From NCBI GenBank assembly GCA_015222055.1, contig JADFUR010000097.1, positions 1-64,000 on the forward strand: a stretch of 64,000 nucleotides of DNA. Direction: 5' to 3'. The notes beneath the pieces were generated by a model, which was not told the DNA's origin, did not search any database, and was given only the letters and a program-made list of their open reading frames with translations. The position numbers and the translations under genes were made by a program. Below are positions 29,418 through 39,151 of the stretch, piece by piece. This DNA comes from Bacteroidota bacterium. GTDB taxonomy: Bacteria; Bacteroidota; Bacteroidia; Bacteroidales; B39-G9. Every line of letters begins with the position of its first letter. The first letter of the stretch is position 1.

Positions 29418-30494
29418 TTAATCCTGTACCTTAATTTTATCATTTTTATTTAAGCCTTCAGTTATTTCAATTCTTAAGCCGTCTGACAATCCGGTTTTTA
29501 CTCTCTTTTTTTCAAACAGATTACTTTTTTTTAAGACTTGTACAAAAGTTGTATCTCCTTTAAAGATAAGGTTTTTTTCATCAATTGTTAAAACGCTGTC
29601 TCTTTTTTCTGTAATTATATCGGCAATAGCAGTATAGCCTGAACGAATTTTTATAGTATCACCGGGGATATTTATTTTTGCTTCAATATCAAATTTTATT
29701 ACTCCGTTTTGTTCAATCCCTTTTGGTGAAATTTTATTAAGAATTGCAGTTGTTTTTAAATTGTTAAGAGCTGTAATTGATATTGAAAAGTTTTTACCTT
29801 TATTTAAATAGACAATATCATTTTCATTTATTTTACCTTTAAATATTAATGATTTTAAATCTGCAATAACAGCTATTGTAGAGCCTTCGTTAAAGTTATT
29901 ACGTTCTATTACCGAGCTGCCTTCTTTTAGAGGCAATTCTAAAACAGTTCCCGATATTGTAGCTCTAACAATATTTGCTACTACCGATTGTTTTTTCGAA
30001 TAACCTTCTTTAATTATTTGTAACTGATTTTTATTTGAATTTAATACCTCAAGAGCTAACTTATATTTTTGATAAGATTGTTCAAATTCAGCTTCAGCTA
30101 TTGTTCCATTTTCAAATAATTGTTTGTTTCTTAAGTAGCTCTTTTTTTCTGTATCAAAATTTATTTGTGAAGTTGTTAGAGCTTTTGTTGCAAGCTCAAC
30201 AGATTTTGGGTCTGCAATTAATTTTATTTTTGCAATTTTATCGCCAACTTTAACTTGTTGTCCTGTTTCGACATACAATTTATCTAAAATGCCTGAAATT
30301 TGAGACTTAAGAGATATTTCTTTTGCAGGTAACAGCAAACCGGATATAAGCCTGTTTTTAATTATATTTTCTATTTTTGCTTGCTCTGTTTTAAAATTAT
30401 TTAATTTTTCTTTACCTTTTATTTTAATCAAAACAACAACCATTATTATGATGATTGTAAAAAGTATTAATATTATTTTTGTTGTTTTACTCAT
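29418..30494 (-). CDS. HlyD-family periplasmic adaptor (MacA-like)
   Basis: The 358-residue protein has an N-terminal membrane anchor (about 5-24), a first lipoyl half (KEISLKSQISGILDKLYVETGQQVKVGDKIAKI), a coiled-coil hairpin (about 85-150), the second lipoyl half, and beta-barrel domains to the C-terminus. Such adaptors connect an inner-membrane pump to a TolC channel. On its strand it follows a toxin-antitoxin pair and, further upstream, an FtsX-type permease, suggesting a MacAB-like or peptide-export complex. The toxin-antitoxin genes between them look like a later insertion. Confidence 0.9.
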   Translation of the reverse strand: MSKTTKIILILFTIIIIMVVVLIKIKGKEKLNNFKTEQAKIENIIKNRLISGLLLPAKEISLKSQISGILDKLYVETGQQVKVGDKIAKIKLIADPKSVELATKALTTSQINFDTEKKSYLRNKQLFENGTIAEAEFEQSYQKYKLALEVLNSNKNQLQIIKEGYSKKQSVVANIVRATISGTVLELPLKEGSSVIERNNFNEGSTIAVIADLKSLIFKGKINENDIVYLNKGKNFSISITALNNLKTTAILNKISPKGIEQNGVIKFDIEAKINIPGDTIKIRSGYTAIADIITEKRDSVLTIDEKNLIFKGDTTFVQVLKKSNLFEKKRVKTGLSDGLRIEITEGLNKNDKIKVQD

Positions 30495-30637
30495 TATGTT
30501 TGGTTTATGAAAAAGTTCTATTTCGAAGTATATTCTTTTAAGTTATAAGAAAATTGAAACGGGCTGTCTTGAAAAGTTTAAAAATTTATTGCTGTTTCGC
30601 CTTTTTTTTTATTTATATTAATTGGGCTTTGTGCCTC

Positions 30638-30955
30638 TTAGTCATCATTTATATCTGAAAAATTATATGAATTTTCTAATAGCATAGCACAATTATGTAC
30701 AGTAAGAATATCTATTCTATTTTCATTAATTATTTGATAAACAATTCTATAATTGCCTCTAATTAATTCTCGTATAGATATATTGTTAAATTCCGGAATT
30801 ATTTTTCCTGAAAAAGGATATGATTCAAGGATATTAACAGAATCGAATAAGCGTTTTACAGTTATTTGAGCATATTTTTCAGAATTCTTGGATATATAAT
30901 CACCTAAATCATTTAAATCTTGAATGGCAGAATCTGTCCAAGTTACTCTATCCAT
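30638..30955 (-). CDS. ParE/RelE-family toxin
   Basis: The 105-residue protein begins RVTWTDSAIQDLNDLGDYISKNSEKYA and continues with ILESYPFSGKIIPEFNNISIRELIRGNYRIVYQI and ILTVHNCAMLL. These are the strand-helix-strand landmarks of ParE/RelE plasmid-stabilisation toxins (Pfam ParE_toxin type). ParE members poison gyrase and RelE members cut mRNA; the sequence does not decide. It overlaps the upstream antitoxin-like gene by 13 bases. Confidence 0.88.
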   Translation of the reverse strand: MDRVTWTDSAIQDLNDLGDYISKNSEKYAQITVKRLFDSVNILESYPFSGKIIPEFNNISIRELIRGNYRIVYQIINENRIDILTVHNCAMLLENSYNFSDINDD

Positions 30956-31125
30956 TTTTTTAATTTTTTCTTAGCCTCTTCTTTTGAATTAATTTTTCCA
31001 TTTTTCGAATCGTCAATTCCTTTCTGAACTTTTTCAATAAAAATAAGATGATCAATTAATTCATCTATTGAAACATTTTCAGGCAAACTATCAAGAGAAT
31101 TTTTTATTTGTGTTTTTGTTATCAT
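30943..31125 (-). CDS. Antitoxin partner of the ParE/RelE toxin
   Basis: The 60-residue protein is acidic in the middle and basic at its end. The sequence DSLPENVSIDELIDHLIFIEKVQKGIDDSKNGK has the helix pattern of small antitoxins found beside ParE-type toxins in Bacteroidota. No clear ribbon-helix-helix or helix-turn-helix DNA-binding motif stands out. Position, size and overlap with the toxin support the call. A -7 match lies 18-25 bases upstream. Confidence 0.75.
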   Translation of the reverse strand: MITKTQIKNSLDSLPENVSIDELIDHLIFIEKVQKGIDDSKNGKINSKEEAKKKLKKWIE

Positions 31126-31142
31126 AATTCTTGATTTTAATC

Positions 31143-31150
31143 CAAAGATA
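31143..31150 (-). promoter_or_regulatory. Candidate -7 element of the second toxin-antitoxin pair
   Basis: The plus-strand CAAAGATA reads TATCTTTG on the minus strand, identical to the element before higB. The leader to the ATG at 31125 would be about 10-12 bases. Confidence 0.5.
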
Positions 31151-31205
31151 ATGAATTTTAAGCGATATTTAATAACTTGTTTTGTTTTCTATTAAGCAAA
31201 TCTGA

Positions 31206-32462
31206 CTAATCGCTATTATAATTTAATGCACTTATAGGTTTTATGTCTGCTGCTCGTTTTGCCGGAACAAAACCTGCAATAACACCCGAAATTATTACTA
31301 AAACAAGAGAGCCTATTGCAATCGGCATATTCATATTCAGGCTGTTAATAAAAAAATCACTTTCATCCATAAAAAATTTTATTAATACATTAATTACTGA
31401 AATAAAAGCAAAACCGGAAATTAATCCAATTATACCGGAAATAAATGTGATGATTATTGATTCGGATAATACCATAAACAAAATTGAATTGGGTTCTGCA
31501 CCAACAGCCTTTCTAATACCGATTTCTTTTGTCCGTTCTTTTACCACTACAAGCATTATATTGCTTATGCTGACTATTCCGCTTAAGAGTAACGCCATAC
31601 CAACTAACCAAAGAAAAACTTTAACTCCGGTAAAAAATTGACCAAAGCCTTTCATTTGCTCTTTATAATTAAATATTGAAAGAGCTTTTCTGTCAGATTT
31701 ATCAAAACCGAGGCGATTTGATAAAAATGTTTTTACTTTTTTTTGAAATTTTAAAGGGTCGGTATTCTGATTTAGTGTTAAACCTACAATATTAAATTCT
31801 TCTCCCTGATTATAAGTTTCTTTCATGGCATTGTACGGGATGTATATTAAAGATTGCTCGCTTTGATTTAAAATTGTGCCTGTTTTTAATAATCCAATCA
31901 CTTTAAACCATGTGCCGGCAATATTTATAAATTTCCCTATTGCTTTTTCATCATTAAAAATAACTGATTTTACTTTACTGCCTATAATTGCTACTTTTCT
32001 TTTTTCTTCATTATCAAATTTGTCAAATAATCTTCCTTTCTTAACATTTATTGTTTTTATCGAAAAATAATCTTGATTAACTCCTTTTATTGAATAATTG
32101 CCAAATTTATCTTGAAAACTAACAATTGAATTTCCCCGATAATTTATTTCAGGCGATATTTTTTCAATCTCTTTAAATCGTTTTTTTAATAATTCAATAT
32201 CAGCTTGATGAAAAAGGATATATTTTCCTTCTGTTTTACCTATAGCAACTTTAGAGCTTTGTCCACCGTAAAGCCATATACTGTTTTGTGCAAACCCTTT
32301 AAAAAACTGCATAATTCCTTCTTGAAACCCTTCGCCTGCACTTAGTATTGTAACAAGAATAAATATACCCCATGCAACGCCAAAACCTGTAAGTATATTT
32401 CTGCGTTTATGTTGTTTAATAGAATTTAGAGCTTCTTCAAAAGCATTGAAATTAAGCATCAT
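31206..32462 (-). CDS. MacB/FtsX-type ABC transporter permease without ATPase domain
   Basis: The 418-residue protein has the MacB permease plan: TM1 at about 22-42 after LNSIKQHKRRNILTGFGVAWG, a large periplasmic domain, and three C-terminal helices with SNIMLVVVKERTKEIGIRKAVGA, the classic FtsX signature. The periplasmic part includes SPEINYRGNSIVSF and FKVIGLLKTGT. The N-terminal ATPase of MacB is absent and no separate LolD/MacB-type ATPase is next to it, so the partner is unknown. It lies upstream of the HlyD adaptor on the same strand, separated by a toxin-antitoxin pair. Confidence 0.9.
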   Translation of the reverse strand: MMLNFNAFEEALNSIKQHKRRNILTGFGVAWGIFILVTILSAGEGFQEGIMQFFKGFAQNSIWLYGGQSSKVAIGKTEGKYILFHQADIELLKKRFKEIEKISPEINYRGNSIVSFQDKFGNYSIKGVNQDYFSIKTINVKKGRLFDKFDNEEKRKVAIIGSKVKSVIFNDEKAIGKFINIAGTWFKVIGLLKTGTILNQSEQSLIYIPYNAMKETYNQGEEFNIVGLTLNQNTDPLKFQKKVKTFLSNRLGFDKSDRKALSIFNYKEQMKGFGQFFTGVKVFLWLVGMALLLSGIVSISNIMLVVVKERTKEIGIRKAVGAEPNSILFMVLSESIIITFISGIIGLISGFAFISVINVLIKFFMDESDFFINSLNMNMPIAIGSLVLVIISGVIAGFVPAKRAADIKPISALNYNSD

Positions 32463-32552: not shown

Positions 32553-34715
32553 TTAAGCCAATTTTTTCCAATATAAACTATATAAATTTTCTGTTTGTAA
32601 TAATTCTTTATGAGTGCCTGCACCAGTAATCTTTCCATTTTCAAGAATATAAATACGGTCGCTGATATTTTTCAGAACATGTATCCTGTGAGAGATATAA
32701 AAAACAGCTATTTCTTGTTTTAATTTACTAAGTATATGAGTTGTGAATTTTTCTGTCTCTCTATCCATTGCAGCAGTAGCTTCGTCAAGAATTAGAAATT
32801 GAGGTTTTTTATACAAAGCCCTGGCAAGTGCAATAATTTGTTTCTGTCCGCCTGATAGATTTATTCCTTCTTCGCCTAATAATGTTAAAACCCCTTGTGG
32901 CAAAGCATCAATATATTTTGCAAAGCCGTATTCCTTAAGAAATGTTAAAACGTTATTTGCTTCTTTTTGTGAATTATCTAAACAAATATTATCTATAACA
33001 TTACCATTAAAAATATGAATATCTTGAGGAACAACACTAATAATATCTCTCCATGAGTTGGTATTGATATCCTGTATATCGGTATTTTTATTAAAAATAA
33101 CATTACCTGTTTCAGGCGTATAAAATTTTTGTAATAGATAAGCGAGTGTGCTTTTTCCGCTTCCACTTTCACCAACAATAGAAATTAACTCACCTTTTTT
33201 TATTGTTAGATTAATATTCTCTAAAATTTTTTTTCTTCCCGGAAATCTAAATGCAAGATTCTGTATTTCTAATTTATCAAAAATTATTTTATCTTCTTTA
33301 TCTGTGATTTTTGTTTCAGAGCGTATGCTTGTAAATTCAAACATACGATTAAAAGCAACTTTTGCTTCATTTATTGGAATTGTAATAAGAGCCAGATTAC
33401 TCACTGACGGCAATAATGATGATGCAATGCCAATCACTGCCATAAGTTCGCCGATTAACATATTACCGTGAAAAACCTGTAACGAAGAATAAATTAGAAT
33501 AGCTGTTAAAAATATAGTGCCGGCAAAACCAGAAATAAAACCAAGACGAATATTAATTTTTCCTAAATCAAATATTTTATCCTGAAAATTACCATATATA
33601 AGTTTGTTGATTTTTGAGAAAAATGTTTGTTTGTTAAAATTTTTAATAACAGATATTCCGTTCATTGAGCTTACATAGTTGCTCTCGTTGTATGCATAAG
33701 TTATCATTACTGATTTCTGGGCATCAATAATCTTTTTGTTAAAACTGTAAATTAAAAAAAAGTAAAATGGCAGACTTATAAGTGCAATAATTCCTGTTTG
33801 CCATGAGTAAAAAAACAAAAAGCCAATTGATGTAATCGAGACAAGTAAATCAATAATAAAATTACCTGCAATTTGTGTAATAACTCCTTGAATACGCCTT
33901 GTGTCGTTTAAACGAGCCACAAGCTCTCCTATTTTTCTTGTGTCGAAAAATGATTTTGGCAGAAAAAGAAGTGAACTGTAAAAAAAATTAATAATTCTGT
34001 TGTTGAAATTTTTGCTTTGTGTTACTAGCATAAATTGTCTTATAGCAGCAAGACCTACTCTCACAATTAATAAAAAAGCTACTAATACAATGCTTAGCAC
34101 TAATTTTTGTAAATCTTTTGAAGGAAGTATATTATCAATTAATTTTTGTGAAAATACAGCTACAACCATGCCGAGAATTGAAATTGCAACACCAAGCACA
34201 ATGCTTATGCCAAGCAGATTGTAATCTTCTTTAATAAGATTAATCAACCATTTCTTTTTCTCATTTTTTATTGCCTCTGTCTTTTGAAATTTATCATTAG
34301 GTATTAATGTAAGGCATTTTTTTGACACCCATATTTTATCTAATTCCTCTTTAGTATAATATACAATTCCTTTTCCGGGATCTCCAATAATAAAATGTTT
34401 GTTTTCGTAACCGTAACACACCAAATAATGCTGTAACCTATAATCGATTAACACATGGAGTATTAAAGGCTTGCCATGGTCAATAATTGCTTGTATATCT
34501 GCTTCATTACCTTCGGCATTAAATCCTGTTTTGTTTGCAGCTTGATATAGCCCGAGCAAAGTAGTTCCTTGCTTGCTTGTGCCGCTTATTTCTCGCAATT
34601 TCTCTAACGAAATATCTCCCGAGTAATATCTTATTAACGACAGTAAACAAGCAACTCCACAATCTGACTGGTCGTGTTGTAGAACAAATGTTTTTTTTAA
34701 TTTTTTAATTTCCAT
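32553..34715 (-). CDS. C39-peptidase-containing ABC transporter (bacteriocin exporter)
   Basis: The 720-residue protein cleaves double-glycine leaders and exports the peptide core. The N-terminal C39 peptidase has Cys19 in HDQSDCGVACL, His96 in LQHYLVCYG and Asp112 in GDPGKG, so its triad is complete. The middle holds about six membrane helices. The C-terminal ATPase has GESGSGKST, LSGGQKQ and FLILDEATAAMD. The organisation is that of LagD/SunT-type peptidase-containing transporters and the length is typical. A matching double-glycine peptide gene lies upstream on the same strand at 38331-38540. The start overlaps the redoxin gene by 11 bases. Confidence 0.95.
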   Translation of the reverse strand: MEIKKLKKTFVLQHDQSDCGVACLLSLIRYYSGDISLEKLREISGTSKQGTTLLGLYQAANKTGFNAEGNEADIQAIIDHGKPLILHVLIDYRLQHYLVCYGYENKHFIIGDPGKGIVYYTKEELDKIWVSKKCLTLIPNDKFQKTEAIKNEKKKWLINLIKEDYNLLGISIVLGVAISILGMVVAVFSQKLIDNILPSKDLQKLVLSIVLVAFLLIVRVGLAAIRQFMLVTQSKNFNNRIINFFYSSLLFLPKSFFDTRKIGELVARLNDTRRIQGVITQIAGNFIIDLLVSITSIGFLFFYSWQTGIIALISLPFYFFLIYSFNKKIIDAQKSVMITYAYNESNYVSSMNGISVIKNFNKQTFFSKINKLIYGNFQDKIFDLGKINIRLGFISGFAGTIFLTAILIYSSLQVFHGNMLIGELMAVIGIASSLLPSVSNLALITIPINEAKVAFNRMFEFTSIRSETKITDKEDKIIFDKLEIQNLAFRFPGRKKILENINLTIKKGELISIVGESGSGKSTLAYLLQKFYTPETGNVIFNKNTDIQDINTNSWRDIISVVPQDIHIFNGNVIDNICLDNSQKEANNVLTFLKEYGFAKYIDALPQGVLTLLGEEGINLSGGQKQIIALARALYKKPQFLILDEATAAMDRETEKFTTHILSKLKQEIAVFYISHRIHVLKNISDRIYILENGKITGAGTHKELLQTENLYSLYWKKLA

Positions 34716-35244
34716 TTTGTTGAGATAGATATTTTAAAAGAGCTTCAGTTTTAACTTCTCCTTTAAATTTTTTAACTAATTTTCCGTTTTTGTTGTATAT
34801 AAATGATGATGGTAACGGAGATTTGCCGAAAATACTGTCAAATTTTATTTCTTTATCTTCCAGTAAATAAATATTAGCAAGTTTATTTAAATGGTATTTT
34901 GTAGCAAACATTTTTAAAGTGTCAGCATCTTCAAATGATACCATTACTATCTGAAAATTTTGAAATTTTTCATTTTGTTTACTTATTTGTTTAATTTCAT
35001 ATTCACAATGTTCACATTCTGTATTGAAATAAATTATTAATGTAGCTTTGTTTTTTTCTAAATTTTTGTTTGTAAACAATTTGTTATTATAAACATTAGT
35101 AAATGAGAAATTTGGTATGGTTTGTATTTGTTTTTCAATAGTTTGTTTGTGTTTAATCATACAAACAATTTTAAAAACCATAAAAGTCAAAAAAAATACC
35201 AAAATAATTGGTATTATAATTTTTAATATTTTTCTCATGTTCAT
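34705..35244 (-). CDS. Membrane-anchored thioredoxin-like redoxin with CEHC motif
   Basis: From the ATG at 35244 the protein has 179 residues: an N-terminal anchor (about 5-27) and a TlpA/AhpC-like thioredoxin fold with IIYFNTECEHCEYEIKQ, the CXXC pair being Cys77 and Cys80. LPSSFIYNKNGKLVKKFKG supplies the cis-Pro region. It should face the periplasm and exchange disulfides. I chose this start because it shares one base with the upstream stop (TAATG), indicating coupling; a longer frame is open but covers the neighbour. Its place between the peptide exporter and a membrane protein suggests work on the two-cysteine peptide, which is inference. Similar redoxins are common in such Bacteroidota loci. 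Confidence 0.85.
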   Translation of the reverse strand: MNMRKILKIIIPIILVFFLTFMVFKIVCMIKHKQTIEKQIQTIPNFSFTNVYNNKLFTNKNLEKNKATLIIYFNTECEHCEYEIKQISKQNEKFQNFQIVMVSFEDADTLKMFATKYHLNKLANIYLLEDKEIKFDSIFGKSPLPSSFIYNKNGKLVKKFKGEVKTEALLKYLSQQNGN

Positions 35245-35897
35245 TAACTGAAAGTAAGGATTAAAAAAATTACACACACCACCCAAATAAAAAGACCTAC
35301 ACCATAAGTACTGAGTATAAACTCAAAAGATTTCCAAAAAGGTTTTTTAATTATATCTTTTAACAGATAAGCAATTATAAACCAGTAGCTTATTTCAAAT
35401 AAGTTTATTGTTTGAAAAGGATAAATTAACCATTTTGGCACTTCATTAACTAAAAATAAATTTGTTAACGATAAGGGATAAAAAAATTGAAGATACTCAA
35501 GCGTTAAATTATGTGAATTAAAATAAATCCATAATAATTTGCTTAATGAAGATAAAATAAATATAGGTTCTGCTAATAATACAATACCAAAAAGCTTTTT
35601 AAACCCAACTTTAAAATTACATAATATTGCACCAATATTAAGCACCAATGCTACTAACGAAAATTTTATTGCAAAAGCAAAAGGTGTTATTATATAATTA
35701 AGCCACATCCATTTTTCAGAAATAGATAAAATATGTTTTATTTTTTCTGTACTAAGTTGCTCCCCAAGATTTTTATAGTAAATATCTTTAATTGGAATAA
35801 TTTGTTGGCTTGCATATATAATAAAAATACTGAAAAGGCATAGTATTATATATACTAATTTTTTGTTAATGTTTAGGTATTTGTTTGTTACACTCAT
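35244..35897 (-). CDS. Hypothetical multi-pass membrane protein of the peptide locus
   Basis: The 217-residue protein has about five hydrophobic helices: near 14-31, 68-90, 100-120, 165-185 and 198-216. Between the first two is a polar loop with ISEKWMWLNY. No catalytic motif or named family is recognised. It is embedded in the operon, two bases after the ATPase gene and coupled to the redoxin gene by stop-start overlap. A role in immunity or in membrane insertion of the peptide would suit its place but is unproven. Confidence 0.7.
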   Translation of the reverse strand: MSVTNKYLNINKKLVYIILCLFSIFIIYASQQIIPIKDIYYKNLGEQLSTEKIKHILSISEKWMWLNYIITPFAFAIKFSLVALVLNIGAILCNFKVGFKKLFGIVLLAEPIFILSSLSKLLWIYFNSHNLTLEYLQFFYPLSLTNLFLVNEVPKWLIYPFQTINLFEISYWFIIAYLLKDIIKKPFWKSFEFILSTYGVGLFIWVVCVIFLILTFS

Positions 35898-35898
35898 A

Positions 35899-36603
35899 TT
35901 ACTCTTGATAAAAATATTTTTTTAATTCATTAAGTGTATATTTATTATTTGAGAGATCTTTAATTATTTCCCCTTTTTCTAATATTATAATTCTATGGCA
36001 AATTTCGGAAATATTGTTTAAATTATGACTTGAAATTAAAATTGTTGCTTTGTTAATTTCATTATATTCTTTTAGCATATCTACCAAGAGCATTTGTGAA
36101 GTAGGATCAAGATTATTAAAAGGCTCGTCTAAAATTATAATTTTAGGTTCTATTAGAAATGTTGATATGATTCCTATTTTTTGTTTATTACCTTGTGAAT
36201 ATTCCCTTATATATTTACCTTTTTGTGCAAGAATTTCGTTATTGAAGAATTTCGAATACTGTTTTAATTTAATGTTAATCTCATTTTTTGTAAACCCATA
36301 TATATTTCCAACAAAATAAAAGTATTCTTCTGCTGTTAAAAAATTTATAAGAAAATCTTCGTCAAGATATGAACCTGTATAATTTTTCCATTTTTCTGAT
36401 TTAGTTACGTCAATATCTCCAATTAAAATTTCACCCGAATCTGATTTTATTAAATCAAGTAATAATCGAAAAAAAGTTGTTTTGCCTGCACCATTATTCC
36501 CTACTAAACCGAATATTTCACCAGATCTTATTTTTAGTTTATCAATATTTAGTACTTTTTTTTTATTATATTCCTTTGTTAAGTTTTTAATATTAATTTC
36601 CAT
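35899..36603 (-). CDS. ABC transporter ATP-binding protein
   Basis: The 234-residue protein starts at the ATG at 36603 (MEINIKNLTKEY), 13 bases after the stop of the permease gene; a longer open frame overlaps that gene and is rejected. Walker A GNNGAGKT is at 35-42, Walker B IIILDEPFNNLDP follows, and the switch is SSHNLNN. The signature motif is degenerate, YSQGNKQK in place of LSGGQ, but still plausible. It should energise the adjacent DUF5687-like permease. In Bacteroidota such pairs often sit with peptide genes; export, immunity or unrelated transport are all open. Confidence 0.9.
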   Translation of the reverse strand: MEINIKNLTKEYNKKKVLNIDKLKIRSGEIFGLVGNNGAGKTTFFRLLLDLIKSDSGEILIGDIDVTKSEKWKNYTGSYLDEDFLINFLTAEEYFYFVGNIYGFTKNEINIKLKQYSKFFNNEILAQKGKYIREYSQGNKQKIGIISTFLIEPKIIILDEPFNNLDPTSQMLLVDMLKEYNEINKATILISSHNLNNISEICHRIIILEKGEIIKDLSNNKYTLNELKKYFYQE

Positions 36604-36616
36604 ATTTTTAATGTTG

Positions 36617-38098
36617 TTATATGCCTTTATACCCTGATAATATTTTATATTTTTTGTTTTTAAAACTCTTAGCAATAAGATTAATCCAAAATTTATTTGA
36701 GCATATAAAAACAATTCCTAATGAGCTAATTATAAGTTTTGCTGTCAATTCATCAAATGTAATAATTAATATTTTGTATATTATTACAGGTAATAATATC
36801 TCAAAAACAAATAGTAGATATTGCCAAACGCCATACCCTTCATAGTTAAAGAATAAGTTTTTATTTAAAGTTGCTCTATCATTATTAAATGTAGCAAAAT
36901 AAATAACAATTAGTGATGTTACACCAATATTAAATAATGAAAAGGATACAAATATGATTATATCAAAATTGGCTAAAAAAAGAAATAATATTGCAATTAG
37001 AGACAAAATAACTGAGCTGTATAAAAATAAATGATATTTTGATAACAGATAAGTTCTGATATTAATTTTTTTTGTAATTAAACCATCGAAATAAGTGCTC
37101 TCCCATGTTAGTAAATATATACCATGTCCAAACATAAAAATTGCACTTAAAAAACTATATCCGCAAAAGAAAAAAAATGTATTATTAGATTTTTGGGGTG
37201 TTATAGAAAAAATAAGTAAAGCGAATATATAACACAAAATGATTTGGAATAAATTATTTTTAGATTTTTTATTTCGTAGTATCATTTTTATTTCAAGAAT
37301 AATAAATTGCCATGTGTTTTTAAAATAAAACGAATGAGGAACTTTAAATGTATTTATTGTTTTATTCTTATTTTTTGTTTTACCTATGTATAAATTTTTT
37401 AATAATATTATTTCATTTATCTTAAATAGTGTAACAAGAATAGTTGTTAGGAATATAAAAATAATAAAATTGTCATTTATTAGTGAGTAAGAAAAAGTAT
37501 TGGATAGTTGTCTGATAGAAAGAATGTTGTGATTTTCTAAAATTAGCATGCTGATAATAAATAATGGAGGAATTAGTTTGTAAAAATATTTTTTTTGTGA
37601 TAATAATTTCCACAGAACGCTTATGTAATTATTAATAAACAAGGTTAATAAAATCCCAATAATAAACGACAATGAATTTACTATTCCATAAGTATATGTT
37701 ATTGTTTTTATTGAATAGGGTAAAAACAAGGTAATACCAAATAAATTATAAATGTTAAATTGAGATTTAATTAATAAATATTTTATGATTTTGCTTTTTT
37801 TAATTTTTAATGTTAAGTAGGGGAAGATATTAATATATGGAACGTTATAAGAGAAAAAGCGCAATAGGAAATCTATTCCAAAGTAGTATAAAATTATTGA
37901 GTTAATTATGTAAATTGGTTCTTTTTCGGGAATAATCTTAATTAAAATTTTATCTGCAAAAAAACTAAATGCAACTAAATTAATTAATAACAAAACAATT
38001 CCTATCCAAATTGAGATGCTTTCGATTAGTTTTTTTCCGAAAAAAGGATTTCTTTTTATGAATTTTAATTGATGAGATAAAAGCTGTTTATAAATCAT
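36617..38098 (-). CDS. DUF5687-like ABC transporter permease
   Basis: The 493-residue protein has about twelve membrane helices and starts MIYKQLLSHQLKFIKRNPFFGKKL. The pattern of an N-terminal cytosolic anchor, then helices with LILENHNILSIRQLS and a second repeat beginning WQFIILEIKMILRNKKSK, fits DUF5687, a Bacteroidota permease family usually paired with an ABC ATPase as here. It is first in the operon of five genes running to the C39 transporter. It is extremely rich in Ile, Phe, Asn and Lys. Family assignment is by pattern and partner gene. Confidence 0.75.
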   Translation of the reverse strand: MIYKQLLSHQLKFIKRNPFFGKKLIESISIWIGIVLLLINLVAFSFFADKILIKIIPEKEPIYIINSIILYYFGIDFLLRFFSYNVPYINIFPYLTLKIKKSKIIKYLLIKSQFNIYNLFGITLFLPYSIKTITYTYGIVNSLSFIIGILLTLFINNYISVLWKLLSQKKYFYKLIPPLFIISMLILENHNILSIRQLSNTFSYSLINDNFIIFIFLTTILVTLFKINEIILLKNLYIGKTKNKNKTINTFKVPHSFYFKNTWQFIILEIKMILRNKKSKNNLFQIILCYIFALLIFSITPQKSNNTFFFFCGYSFLSAIFMFGHGIYLLTWESTYFDGLITKKINIRTYLLSKYHLFLYSSVILSLIAILFLFLANFDIIIFVSFSLFNIGVTSLIVIYFATFNNDRATLNKNLFFNYEGYGVWQYLLFVFEILLPVIIYKILIITFDELTAKLIISSLGIVFICSNKFWINLIAKSFKNKKYKILSGYKGI

Positions 38099-38266
38099 AA
38101 TTAGGGCAAAATTGCATCCTCTCCGATAGAGAGATAAAATAATTATATTGAAATATTTTTACTTTAGCTTGTTAATTTATTTATTTCACAAGAACCCAAT
38201 TATAAACATATAAATTTGAGCTATAAATTATTATTTTTCTGAGAGCATTTTTAAAAAAATAATAAT

Positions 38267-38310
38267 AAAGACTCAATAGTAAATTTAATCCTTGTTTCCA
38301 TTGAGTCTTT
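38267..38310 (-). terminator. Intrinsic terminator of the double-glycine peptide gene
   Basis: Arms AAAGACTCAAT (38267-38277) and ATTGAGTCTTT (38300-38310) form an 11-bp stem with a 22-base loop. On the minus strand an AT tract rich in T follows. It lies 20 bases after the peptide stop, so the peptide is probably made at a higher level than the transporter operon downstream. Confidence 0.7.
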
Positions 38311-38330
38311 TCGTTGATGATCAATAATCA

Positions 38331-38540
38331 TTAATGGCAAACGTAGCCGACAAGCAAACCACCACCCAAAGCAACACCAAAAGCAGCAACACCAAAAGTT
38401 GCAGCACTTAATGCAGCTCCCCATATACCTACGACAATACCAAGTGATATATCACATGCATTTATTTTAGAAACTGAAGTATTACTTGCTGCAACTCCAC
38501 CCTCAACATTTTCCATTTGATTTAATTCTAATTTTTTCAT
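38331..38540 (-). CDS. Double-glycine-leader peptide, bacteriocin-like
   Basis: The 69-residue product has a leader MKKLELNQMENVEGG (1-15) with the LxxxxMxxVEGG pattern cut by C39 peptidases after Gly15. The 54-residue core is small, Gly/Ala-rich and hydrophobic with GxxxG-like spacing (GIVVGIWGAALSAATFGVAA), as in class II pore-forming bacteriocins. It contains just two cysteines, Cys29 and Cys68, near both ends of the hydrophobic stretch, so one disulfide could close a large loop. The gene is separate from the operon by a terminator, and a divergent XRE gene lies upstream. The matching C39 transporter is on the same strand. Antibacterial action is inferred. Confidence 0.85.
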   Translation of the reverse strand: MKKLELNQMENVEGGVAASNTSVSKINACDISLGIVVGIWGAALSAATFGVAAFGVALGGGLLVGYVCH

Positions 38541-38681
38541 TGTATTAAATTTTTAGTTTATAAATAGTAATTATAAATGTAAAATTAATTTATAAACCAT
38601 TAGCTTATTATTCCTATATGTAATAATTTATTACTACAGCGAATAATTTATAACTAAAATAAATAATTAGCAAATTTTTTA

Positions 38682-38689
38682 TATATTTG
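38682..38689 (+). promoter_or_regulatory. Candidate -7 element for the XRE regulator
   Basis: TATATTTG matches TAnnTTTG, 30 bases upstream of the ATG at 38720. The very AT-rich 38541-38681 region between the divergent genes must also hold the promoter and any operator of the peptide gene. No clear -7 match was found for the peptide gene. Confidence 0.5.
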
Positions 38690-38719
38690 TTTTATAATCA
38701 ACACATAAAAATCACAAGT

Positions 38720-39151
38720 ATGCAAGTATCAACAAAAATAAGAAAAATTAGAGAATTTAAAGGTTTTTCTCAAGAATTTATGGCAGCACAATTAAGTATG
38801 TCGCAAGCAACTTACAGCAAATTAGAGAAAAATGATAAGAGTGTAAATTTTGATAATATTAAAGATATTGCAAAAGTTTTAAGTGTTGACCCAATGCAAT
38901 TGTTAACTTTTGACGAACAACAAGTTTTTAATAACGACAACCAAAAAGGCGGGAATGCCGGAAATTTAATAATTCAGGCATATTCCGAAAAAGAACGCCA
39001 TCTATATGAAGAAAAAATAAAAGCCAAAGAGCAAATAATAGAAGAAAAAATAACATACATACAAGATTTAAAAGAAGCAATAAAACATTTACGAGCAGAT
39101 AAATCAGAATTAAGAAAAGCTTTGCAAGAGAGCAAATTTTTAAATAAGTAG
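38720..39151 (+). CDS. XRE-family transcriptional regulator with C-terminal coiled coil
   Basis: From the ATG at 38720 the protein has 143 residues. Residues 3-60 form an XRE helix-turn-helix (TKIRKIREFKGFSQEFMAAQ, then MSQATYSKLEKNDKSVNFDNI). After a short linker with GGNAGN, residues 85-140 form a charged coiled coil (EEKIKAKEQIIEEKITYIQDLKE-like heptads). Upstream codons from a TTG overlap the promoter and are rejected. Divergent from the peptide gene, it is the natural candidate regulator of the locus. Its transcript would end in the pgi-derived terminator. Confidence 0.88.
   Translation: MQVSTKIRKIREFKGFSQEFMAAQLSMSQATYSKLEKNDKSVNFDNIKDIAKVLSVDPMQLLTFDEQQVFNNDNQKGGNAGNLIIQAYSEKERHLYEEKIKAKEQIIEEKITYIQDLKEAIKHLRADKSELRKALQESKFLNK

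What the first reader, a model, noticed from the sequence alone, without database searches (positions are those of the whole stretch)
32553..39151. Bacteriocin-type peptide locus with C39 exporter, redoxin, ABC pair and XRE regulator
A 69-residue double-glycine peptide gene, a divergent XRE regulator, and a five-gene operon (DUF5687-like permease, ABC ATPase, small membrane protein, CXXC redoxin, C39-peptidase ABC transporter) form one compact unit. Peptide and exporter fit by leader pattern and complete C39 triad. Bacteroidota bacteriocins of this kind are little described, and the pairing with a DUF5687 transporter and an orphan membrane protein has no role known to me.
Basis: partly seen in the sequence, partly recalled or inferred. 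Interest (0 to 1): 0.72.

Follow-up and report, generated by a model that had tools for sequence, protein, structure and literature searches.

The report
Bacteroidetocin-type peptide toxin gene cluster
This stretch encodes a small disulfide-type antibacterial peptide with its cutter-exporter, folding helper and a membrane partner, the set already known from "bacteroidetocin" clusters of gut Bacteroides, but with an added transporter that may be the self-protection the known clusters lack.

Summary
In detail: all seven genes are intact at the stated places. The core (217-residue five-helix membrane protein, CxxC redoxin, C39 exporter, 15-residue double-glycine leader) has the parts described for bacteroidetocin regions (Coyne 2019, PMC6671954), where the membrane protein and thiol oxidoreductase are needed for toxin activity and neither gives immunity. 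In 80 Bacteroidota loci found through the exporter, redoxin is adjacent in 77 and the membrane protein in 68 (gaps mostly contig ends). Of 74 linked peptides, 71 have a 15-residue leader and 68 have 2 or 4 core cysteines (3.3 expected). New relative to the published clusters: an ABC transporter (ATPase plus DUF5687) between peptide and membrane protein, where 9 of 50 loci carry an ABC ATPase; one homologue fuses DUF5687 to the ATPase. It is my best candidate for self-protection. The locus extends to a MacB/HlyD pair (29418-32462) that may carry the folded peptide across the outer membrane. A divergent XRE gene recurs in 18 of 46 loci. Killing and immunity are untested.

The parts
38331..38540 (-). 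precursor peptide, 69 aa: 15-aa double-glycine leader (38496-38540) and 54-aa glycine/alanine-rich core with two Cys
   Evidence: leader matches the family consensus of 71 linked peptides; core Cys at 14 and 53
38267..38310 (-). 13-bp hairpin followed by a U-rich run, between peptide gene and DUF5687: probable partial terminator
   Evidence: z -2.3 against shuffles; function inferred
36617..38098 (-). DUF5687 permease of an ABC transporter
   Evidence: PF18940 311.4 bits; homologue fused to an ABC ATPase in L149
35899..36603 (-). ABC ATPase, partner of DUF5687; candidate self-protection transporter
   Evidence: PF00005 83.5 bits; nearest NCBIfam models DrrA, GldA, lantibiotic protection, all below cut-off; position enriched in related loci
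35244..35897 (-). 217-aa five-helix membrane protein (TM217), counterpart of the bacteroidetocin TM protein
   Evidence: homologues in the same place in 68 of 80 loci; AlphaFold model pLDDT 95.6, five long helices
34705..35244 (-). membrane-anchored periplasmic redoxin (CEHC), thiol oxidoreductase
   Evidence: AhpC-TSA 48.9 bits; CxxC and Pro145 invariant in 14 homologues; ResA-like solved relatives
32553..34715 (-). C39 peptidase-containing ABC exporter
   Evidence: full-length match to solved bacteriocin transporter 4ry2, E 2e-117
31206..32462 (-). MacB-like permease (no ATPase domain)
   Evidence: MacB_PCD 97 bits, FtsX 69.5; closest relatives stand directly downstream of C39 in L095 and L090
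29418..30494 (-). HlyD/MacA-like periplasmic adaptor
   Evidence: TIGR01730 110.2 bits, above cut-off 94.9; 55% identical to the copy in L095
38720..39151 (+). XRE-type regulator, divergent from the peptide gene
   Evidence: HTH_3 42.6 bits; divergent XRE gene within 800 bp of the peptide in 18 of 46 loci

Best explanation
A bacteroidetocin-type (unmodified, disulfide-carrying) bacteriocin locus. The 69-aa precursor is recognised by its 15-aa leader, cut after GG by the C39 domain and moved into the periplasm by the same protein. The anchored redoxin forms the disulfide between the two core cysteines; TM217 is needed for production of active toxin, at a step not known. The DUF5687/ABC ATPase pair expels the toxin from the producer's own membrane (self-protection). 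MacB and HlyD, with an outer-membrane channel and an ATPase encoded elsewhere, carry the folded peptide out. The divergent XRE protein controls the shared promoter region. Shown here: gene content, conserved order, invariant active sites, paired cysteines, the DUF5687-ATPase fusion. [quoted passage not shown] Inferred: toxicity of this peptide, the disulfide itself, self-protection, outer-membrane step, regulation. My step confidences: cassette identity 0.9, antibacterial 0.75, DUF5687-ABC self-protection 0.55, MacB/HlyD export 0.45. The overall figure is for the locus being a bacteroidetocin-type bacteriocin locus, not for every step.
For: Same parts as in published bacteroidetocin regions, where TM protein and thiol oxidoreductase deletions attenuate toxin activity and neither gives immunity; L132 and L133 show the published TM-peptide-redoxin-C39 order with homologous TM genes. 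Redoxin in 77 and TM217 in 68 of 80 C39 loci. Search by TM217 alone: 13 loci in 9 other genomes of the order; redoxin adjacent or in the same module in 12, C39 in the cluster of all 9 genomes. 68 of 74 cores have 2 or 4 Cys, 3.3 expected. C39 catalytic residues and redoxin CxxC invariant. ABC ATPase 0-2.5 kb upstream of TM217 in 9 of 50 loci, 1 and 0 in the next two intervals, 1 downstream of C39. DUF5687-ATPase fusion in L149. L141 repeats the whole row XRE< peptide DUF5687 ABC TM217 redoxin C39 ... MacB HlyD. MacB/HlyD closest to copies behind C39 in distant taxa (49%/55%); MacB only 40% identical to own-family copies. MacAB-TolC exports a disulfide-bonded peptide from the periplasm (PMC5985334).
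Against: No activity data. The published bacteroidetocin sequences were not held, so homology to those proteins is by architecture, not direct comparison. The core (54 aa) is longer than the published range (35-50). Bacteroidetocin A and B producers are not immune, so self-protection is not obligatory. About half of the phylum-wide TM217-profile hits have no redoxin or C39 within 1.5 kb, so the membrane protein is not exclusive to such loci. MacB/HlyD stand behind C39 in only 3 of 80 loci, and a ParE toxin gene separates them here. The 80 loci were found through C39, so peptide-C39 linkage in that set is partly by construction.
Confidence: 0.82

Rival explanations
1. The peptide is a signal (pheromone) exported by the cassette, with the XRE protein as its regulator, not a toxin.
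For: GG peptides exported by PCATs can be signals (PMC7018657, abstract); an XRE gene lies divergently in 18 of 46 loci.
Against: Cores are long, hydrophobic, G/A-rich and hypervariable with paired Cys; several different peptides often share one exporter (15 loci with two, 3 with three; four peptide genes in L027/L028); an architectural relative kills.
Confidence: 0.12
2. The DUF5687/ABC pair helps maturation or export of the peptide and is not for self-protection.
For: It is in the same operon, and some loci lack any such transporter.
Against: The C39 exporter already crosses the inner membrane; the slot between peptide and TM217 holds unrelated kinds of protein from locus to locus (ABC with DUF5687, ABC with two other membrane proteins, proteins of about 130 aa, CarboxypepD_reg proteins), the pattern expected of toxin-specific immunity.
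Confidence: 0.3
3. MacB and HlyD are ordinary efflux neighbours without a role in the system.
For: MacB/HlyD are common in these genomes; only 3 of 80 loci have them behind C39; here a ParE toxin gene separates them.
Against: Their closest relatives among the sequences compared are the copies directly downstream of C39 in Marinifilum and a Flavobacteriales bin, not those of the same family.
Confidence: 0.4
4. A modified peptide (lanthipeptide or other RiPP) rather than an unmodified bacteriocin.
For: The genome has a separate class I lanthipeptide cluster with its own C39 exporter.
Against: No modifying enzyme was found among the genes of this locus; the leader differs from the one in the lanthipeptide cluster.
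Confidence: 0.05

Closest known systems
Bacteroidetocins (proposed class IIf; Coyne et al. 2019, PMC6671954)
   Same: 15-aa GG leader, paired Cys, five-TM protein, thiol oxidoreductase, C39 ABC exporter, Bacteroidota
   Different: 54-aa G/A-rich two-Cys core instead of 42 aa with four Cys; peptide first in the row instead of between TM and oxidoreductase genes; added DUF5687/ABC, MacB/HlyD and XRE
PCAT1-type bacteriocin exporter (PDB 4ry2)
   Same: full-length C39-TMD-NBD architecture, conserved Q/C/H/D
   Different: serves a Gram-negative with a second membrane to cross
Tripartite C39 exporters of Bacteroidota with HlyD and TolC (e.g. plasmid of Phocaeicola salanitronis, L150)
   Same: GG peptide and C39 exporter
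   Different: C39 about 32% identical; HlyD and TolC next to C39, no annotated redoxin or TM217 counterpart there
YknWXYZ of Bacillus (PMC4887032)
   Same: toxin-linked set of MacB-like permease, adaptor, ATPase and a small membrane protein; its substrate SDP is a 42-aa peptide with one disulfide
   Different: known as protection against the toxin; YknW is a Yip1 protein, and the window protein does not reach the Yip1 model

Membership tests
Bacteroidetocins (class IIf) | leader of 15-16 aa ending in GG | tested here: met
Bacteroidetocins (class IIf) | at least two Cys in the mature peptide | tested here: met
   core Cys 14 and 53
Bacteroidetocins (class IIf) | mature size 35-50 aa | tested here: not met
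   54 aa by the predicted GG cut; cores of homologous cassettes range 31-74. For this reason it is called bacteroidetocin-type, not a bacteroidetocin in the strict sense
Bacteroidetocins (class IIf) | adjacent five-TM protein, thiol oxidoreductase and C39 ABC exporter | tested here: met
Bacteroidetocins (class IIf) | sequence relation to bacteroidetocin A/B and their TM protein | not testable with these tools
   published sequences not held; only loci with the same TM-peptide-redoxin-C39 order could be compared (L132, L133)
Bacteroidetocins (class IIf) | kills Bacteroidota | not testable with these tools
   needs a peptide assay
Peptidase-containing ABC transporters (PCAT) | C39 domain with Q/C/H/D, ABC_membrane and ABC_tran on one chain | tested here: met
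DUF5687 as ABC permease | functional tie to an ABC ATPase | tested here: met
   adjacent ATPase in window, L141, L142, L026/L071; fusion in L149
DUF5687 as ABC permease | ABC-2 type fold | tested here: inconclusive
   model pLDDT 49.6, unusable
Yip1 family | Pfam PF04893 above gathering score | tested here: not met
   no hit for the window protein; one distant relative in L035 passes (31.4 against 28.6); direct profile comparison with a Yip1 protein of the own genome fails
MacAB pump | MacB permease fused to or accompanied by its ATPase, plus adaptor | tested here: inconclusive
   permease and adaptor present; no MacB-type ATPase next to them, unlike L090 and L141
Class IIa (pediocin-like) bacteriocins | YGNGVxC motif | tested here: not met
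   absent from the core

The most novel reading that the evidence does not exclude
The locus is a two-stage trans-envelope bacteriocin machine: C39 export and redoxin folding in the periplasm, then MacB/HlyD ejection through an outer-membrane channel, with the five-helix protein acting as an assembly factor as YknW does in Bacillus, and with DUF5687/ABC as the first dedicated self-protection for a bacteroidetocin-type toxin.
Probability: 0.2. Interest if true: 0.7.

Novelty: new variant of a known kind. Interest (0 to 1): 0.45.

Why it matters
Bacteroidetocin A and B producers are sensitive to their own toxins and no immunity protein is known (PMC6671954, PMC8546649). A related locus with an ABC transporter in the variable slot between peptide and export cassette makes self-protection directly testable, gives DUF5687 (PF18940; no paper in the library mentions it) a concrete role as an ABC permease, and shows that this type of peptide locus is spread through marine and environmental Bacteroidota such as Flavobacterium and Tenacibaculum, not only the human gut.

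Tried and rejected
Foldseek and VIA-align of the confident TM217 model against the PDB gave no convincing match (best Foldseek E 2.4, best Z 4.1), and no solved chain matches by sequence; this does not show that the fold is new. DUF5687 fold prediction failed (pLDDT 49.6). A genome-contig scan with TM217 alone found nothing; the C39 alignment was used instead. A plasmid search for a published bacteroidetocin locus gave two Bacteroidota loci that were looked at, both of the HlyD/TolC type. The empty site in the same genus could not be read because the contigs with both flanks end there. XRE operator: the intergenic region is so A+T-rich that inverted repeats are uninformative. A Yip1 assignment of TM217 was considered and not adopted. 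The lanthipeptide reading was rejected for want of modifying enzymes.
Full report
Observation. The peptide reads MKKLELNQMENVEGG / VAASNTSVSKINACDISLGIVVGIWGAALSAATFGVAAFGVALGGGLLVGYVCH. The core has two cysteines at positions 14 and 53 and 35% Gly+Ala. Redoxin and C39 genes overlap; TM217 and redoxin touch. A 13-bp hairpin with a U-rich tail lies between the peptide gene and DUF5687; such a hairpin would give more peptide message than downstream message (inference).

Conserved cassette. A search by the 217-aa membrane protein alone in 295 genomes of the order gave 13 confident loci in 9 other genomes. Their neighbourhoods hold the redoxin directly behind it in 11 loci, in the same module in one more, and a C39 exporter in the cluster of all nine genomes. 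In G167 four peptide genes, three of them in modules with their own TM217 and redoxin, share one C39 exporter. A scan of named genomes with the C39 alignment returned 80 loci: redoxin in 77, TM217 in 68, nearly always in the order TM217-redoxin-C39. They come from Bacteroidales, Flavobacterium, Tenacibaculum, Polaribacter, Kordia, Capnocytophaga, Dyadobacter, Chitinophagaceae and others. Because this set was found through C39, the first search is the less biased one. In a phylum-wide profile search TM217 relatives occur in 31 of 395 genomes, but only about half of those loci have redoxin within 1.5 kb; some are a chromosomal subfamily without C39 nearby. TM217 relatives are therefore not exclusive to bacteriocin loci.

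Peptides. In the 80 loci, 74 small genes carry a short leader of the same pattern; 71 leaders are exactly 15 residues, close to MKKLELNQMENLEGG. Sixty-three cores have two Cys and five have four, 68 in all against 3.3 expected from composition; the same pattern on the opposite strand was found once. Mean pairwise identity is 55% for leaders and 10% for cores. Conserved leader, hypervariable core with paired cysteines, and a neighbouring oxidoreductase fit disulfide-bonded bacteriocins.

What is known. Coyne et al. (PMC6671954) describe bacteroidetocin regions as a five-TM protein, a GG peptide, a thiol oxidoreductase and a C39 ABC exporter. Deleting the TM protein or oxidoreductase attenuates toxin activity, neither protects, and producers inhibit themselves. 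Bacteroidetocin A acts on BamA (PMC8546649). The window cassette has the same parts. The AlphaFold model of TM217 (pLDDT 95.6) has five long helices. Loci L132 and L133 show the published TM-peptide-oxidoreductase-C39 order with homologous TM genes. The published sequences themselves were not available, so this identification rests on architecture.

The extra transporter. Between peptide and TM217 the window has DUF5687 and an ABC ATPase. The interval 0-2.5 kb upstream of TM217 holds an ABC ATPase in 9 of 50 loci, against 1, 0 and 1 in three control intervals. The permease partner differs: DUF5687 in L141 and L142, two shorter proteins in L071 and L119, of which the three tested match no Pfam family (L071 both, L119 first). 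In L149 half of a DUF5687 is fused to the ATPase in one 447-aa protein at the same place, strong evidence that DUF5687 works as an ABC permease. Other loci have proteins of about 130 aa or CarboxypepD_reg proteins there. A slot with exchangeable proteins is what toxin-specific immunity genes look like; that is an inference, not a demonstration.

Beyond the stated coordinates. MacB (31206-32462) and HlyD (29418-30494) follow C39 on the same strand. Among all sequences compared, their nearest relatives stand directly behind C39 in L095 (Marinifilum, 49% and 55%) and L090 (47% and 42%); MacB of the own family reaches 40%. L141 repeats the whole row from XRE to HlyD, with one extra 194-aa gene. 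MacAB-TolC takes a disulfide-bonded peptide from the periplasm and ejects it (PMC5985334), and in Bacillus a MacB-like set with the Yip1 protein YknW protects against the disulfide-bonded toxin SDP (PMC4887032). In L035 a TM217 relative that passes the Yip1 cut-off is contiguous with ATPase, HlyD and MacB beside three GG peptides. This suggests, but does not show, that TM217 works with such pumps; direct comparison of the TM217 profile with a genuine Yip1 protein failed.

Regulator. A divergent XRE-type gene lies within 800 bp of the first peptide in 18 of 46 loci; seven further hits lie elsewhere in those loci.

Verdict. Real, largely explained, and a variant of a known kind. The valuable part is a testable self-protection candidate for bacteroidetocin-type toxins and a role for DUF5687.

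Noticed in passing
own genome G000 contig C38 (L036: 418-9975): A separate class I lanthipeptide cluster: split LanB (Lant_dehydr_N and _C), LanC, its own C39 exporter and an 84-aa GG precursor.
   Followed up: partly
window 30638-31125 (-): A ParE toxin gene and a 60-aa upstream partner sit between MacB and HlyD, as if inserted into that operon.
   Followed up: partly
L070 840-2135, L027 9483-11232, L028 951-1865, L032 7358-8248, L162 3600-4484, L236 7066-8007: Proteins of about 290-430 aa with a CarboxypepD_reg-like domain recur in related loci; role unknown, possibly immunity.
   Followed up: no
L034 8144-18214: Five DUF5687-like genes in one related locus with several GG peptides and two TM217-redoxin pairs.
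   Followed up: no
L228-L234: A chromosomal subfamily of TM217-like proteins without redoxin or C39 nearby, in L228 beside a TPR protein and an Lrp/AsnC regulator; function unknown.
   Followed up: partly
L081, L085, L086, L092, L100 and others: Fifteen loci encode two GG peptides with different cores, often one with an FWxGFC-type start, which would fit two-peptide bacteriocins.
   Followed up: no
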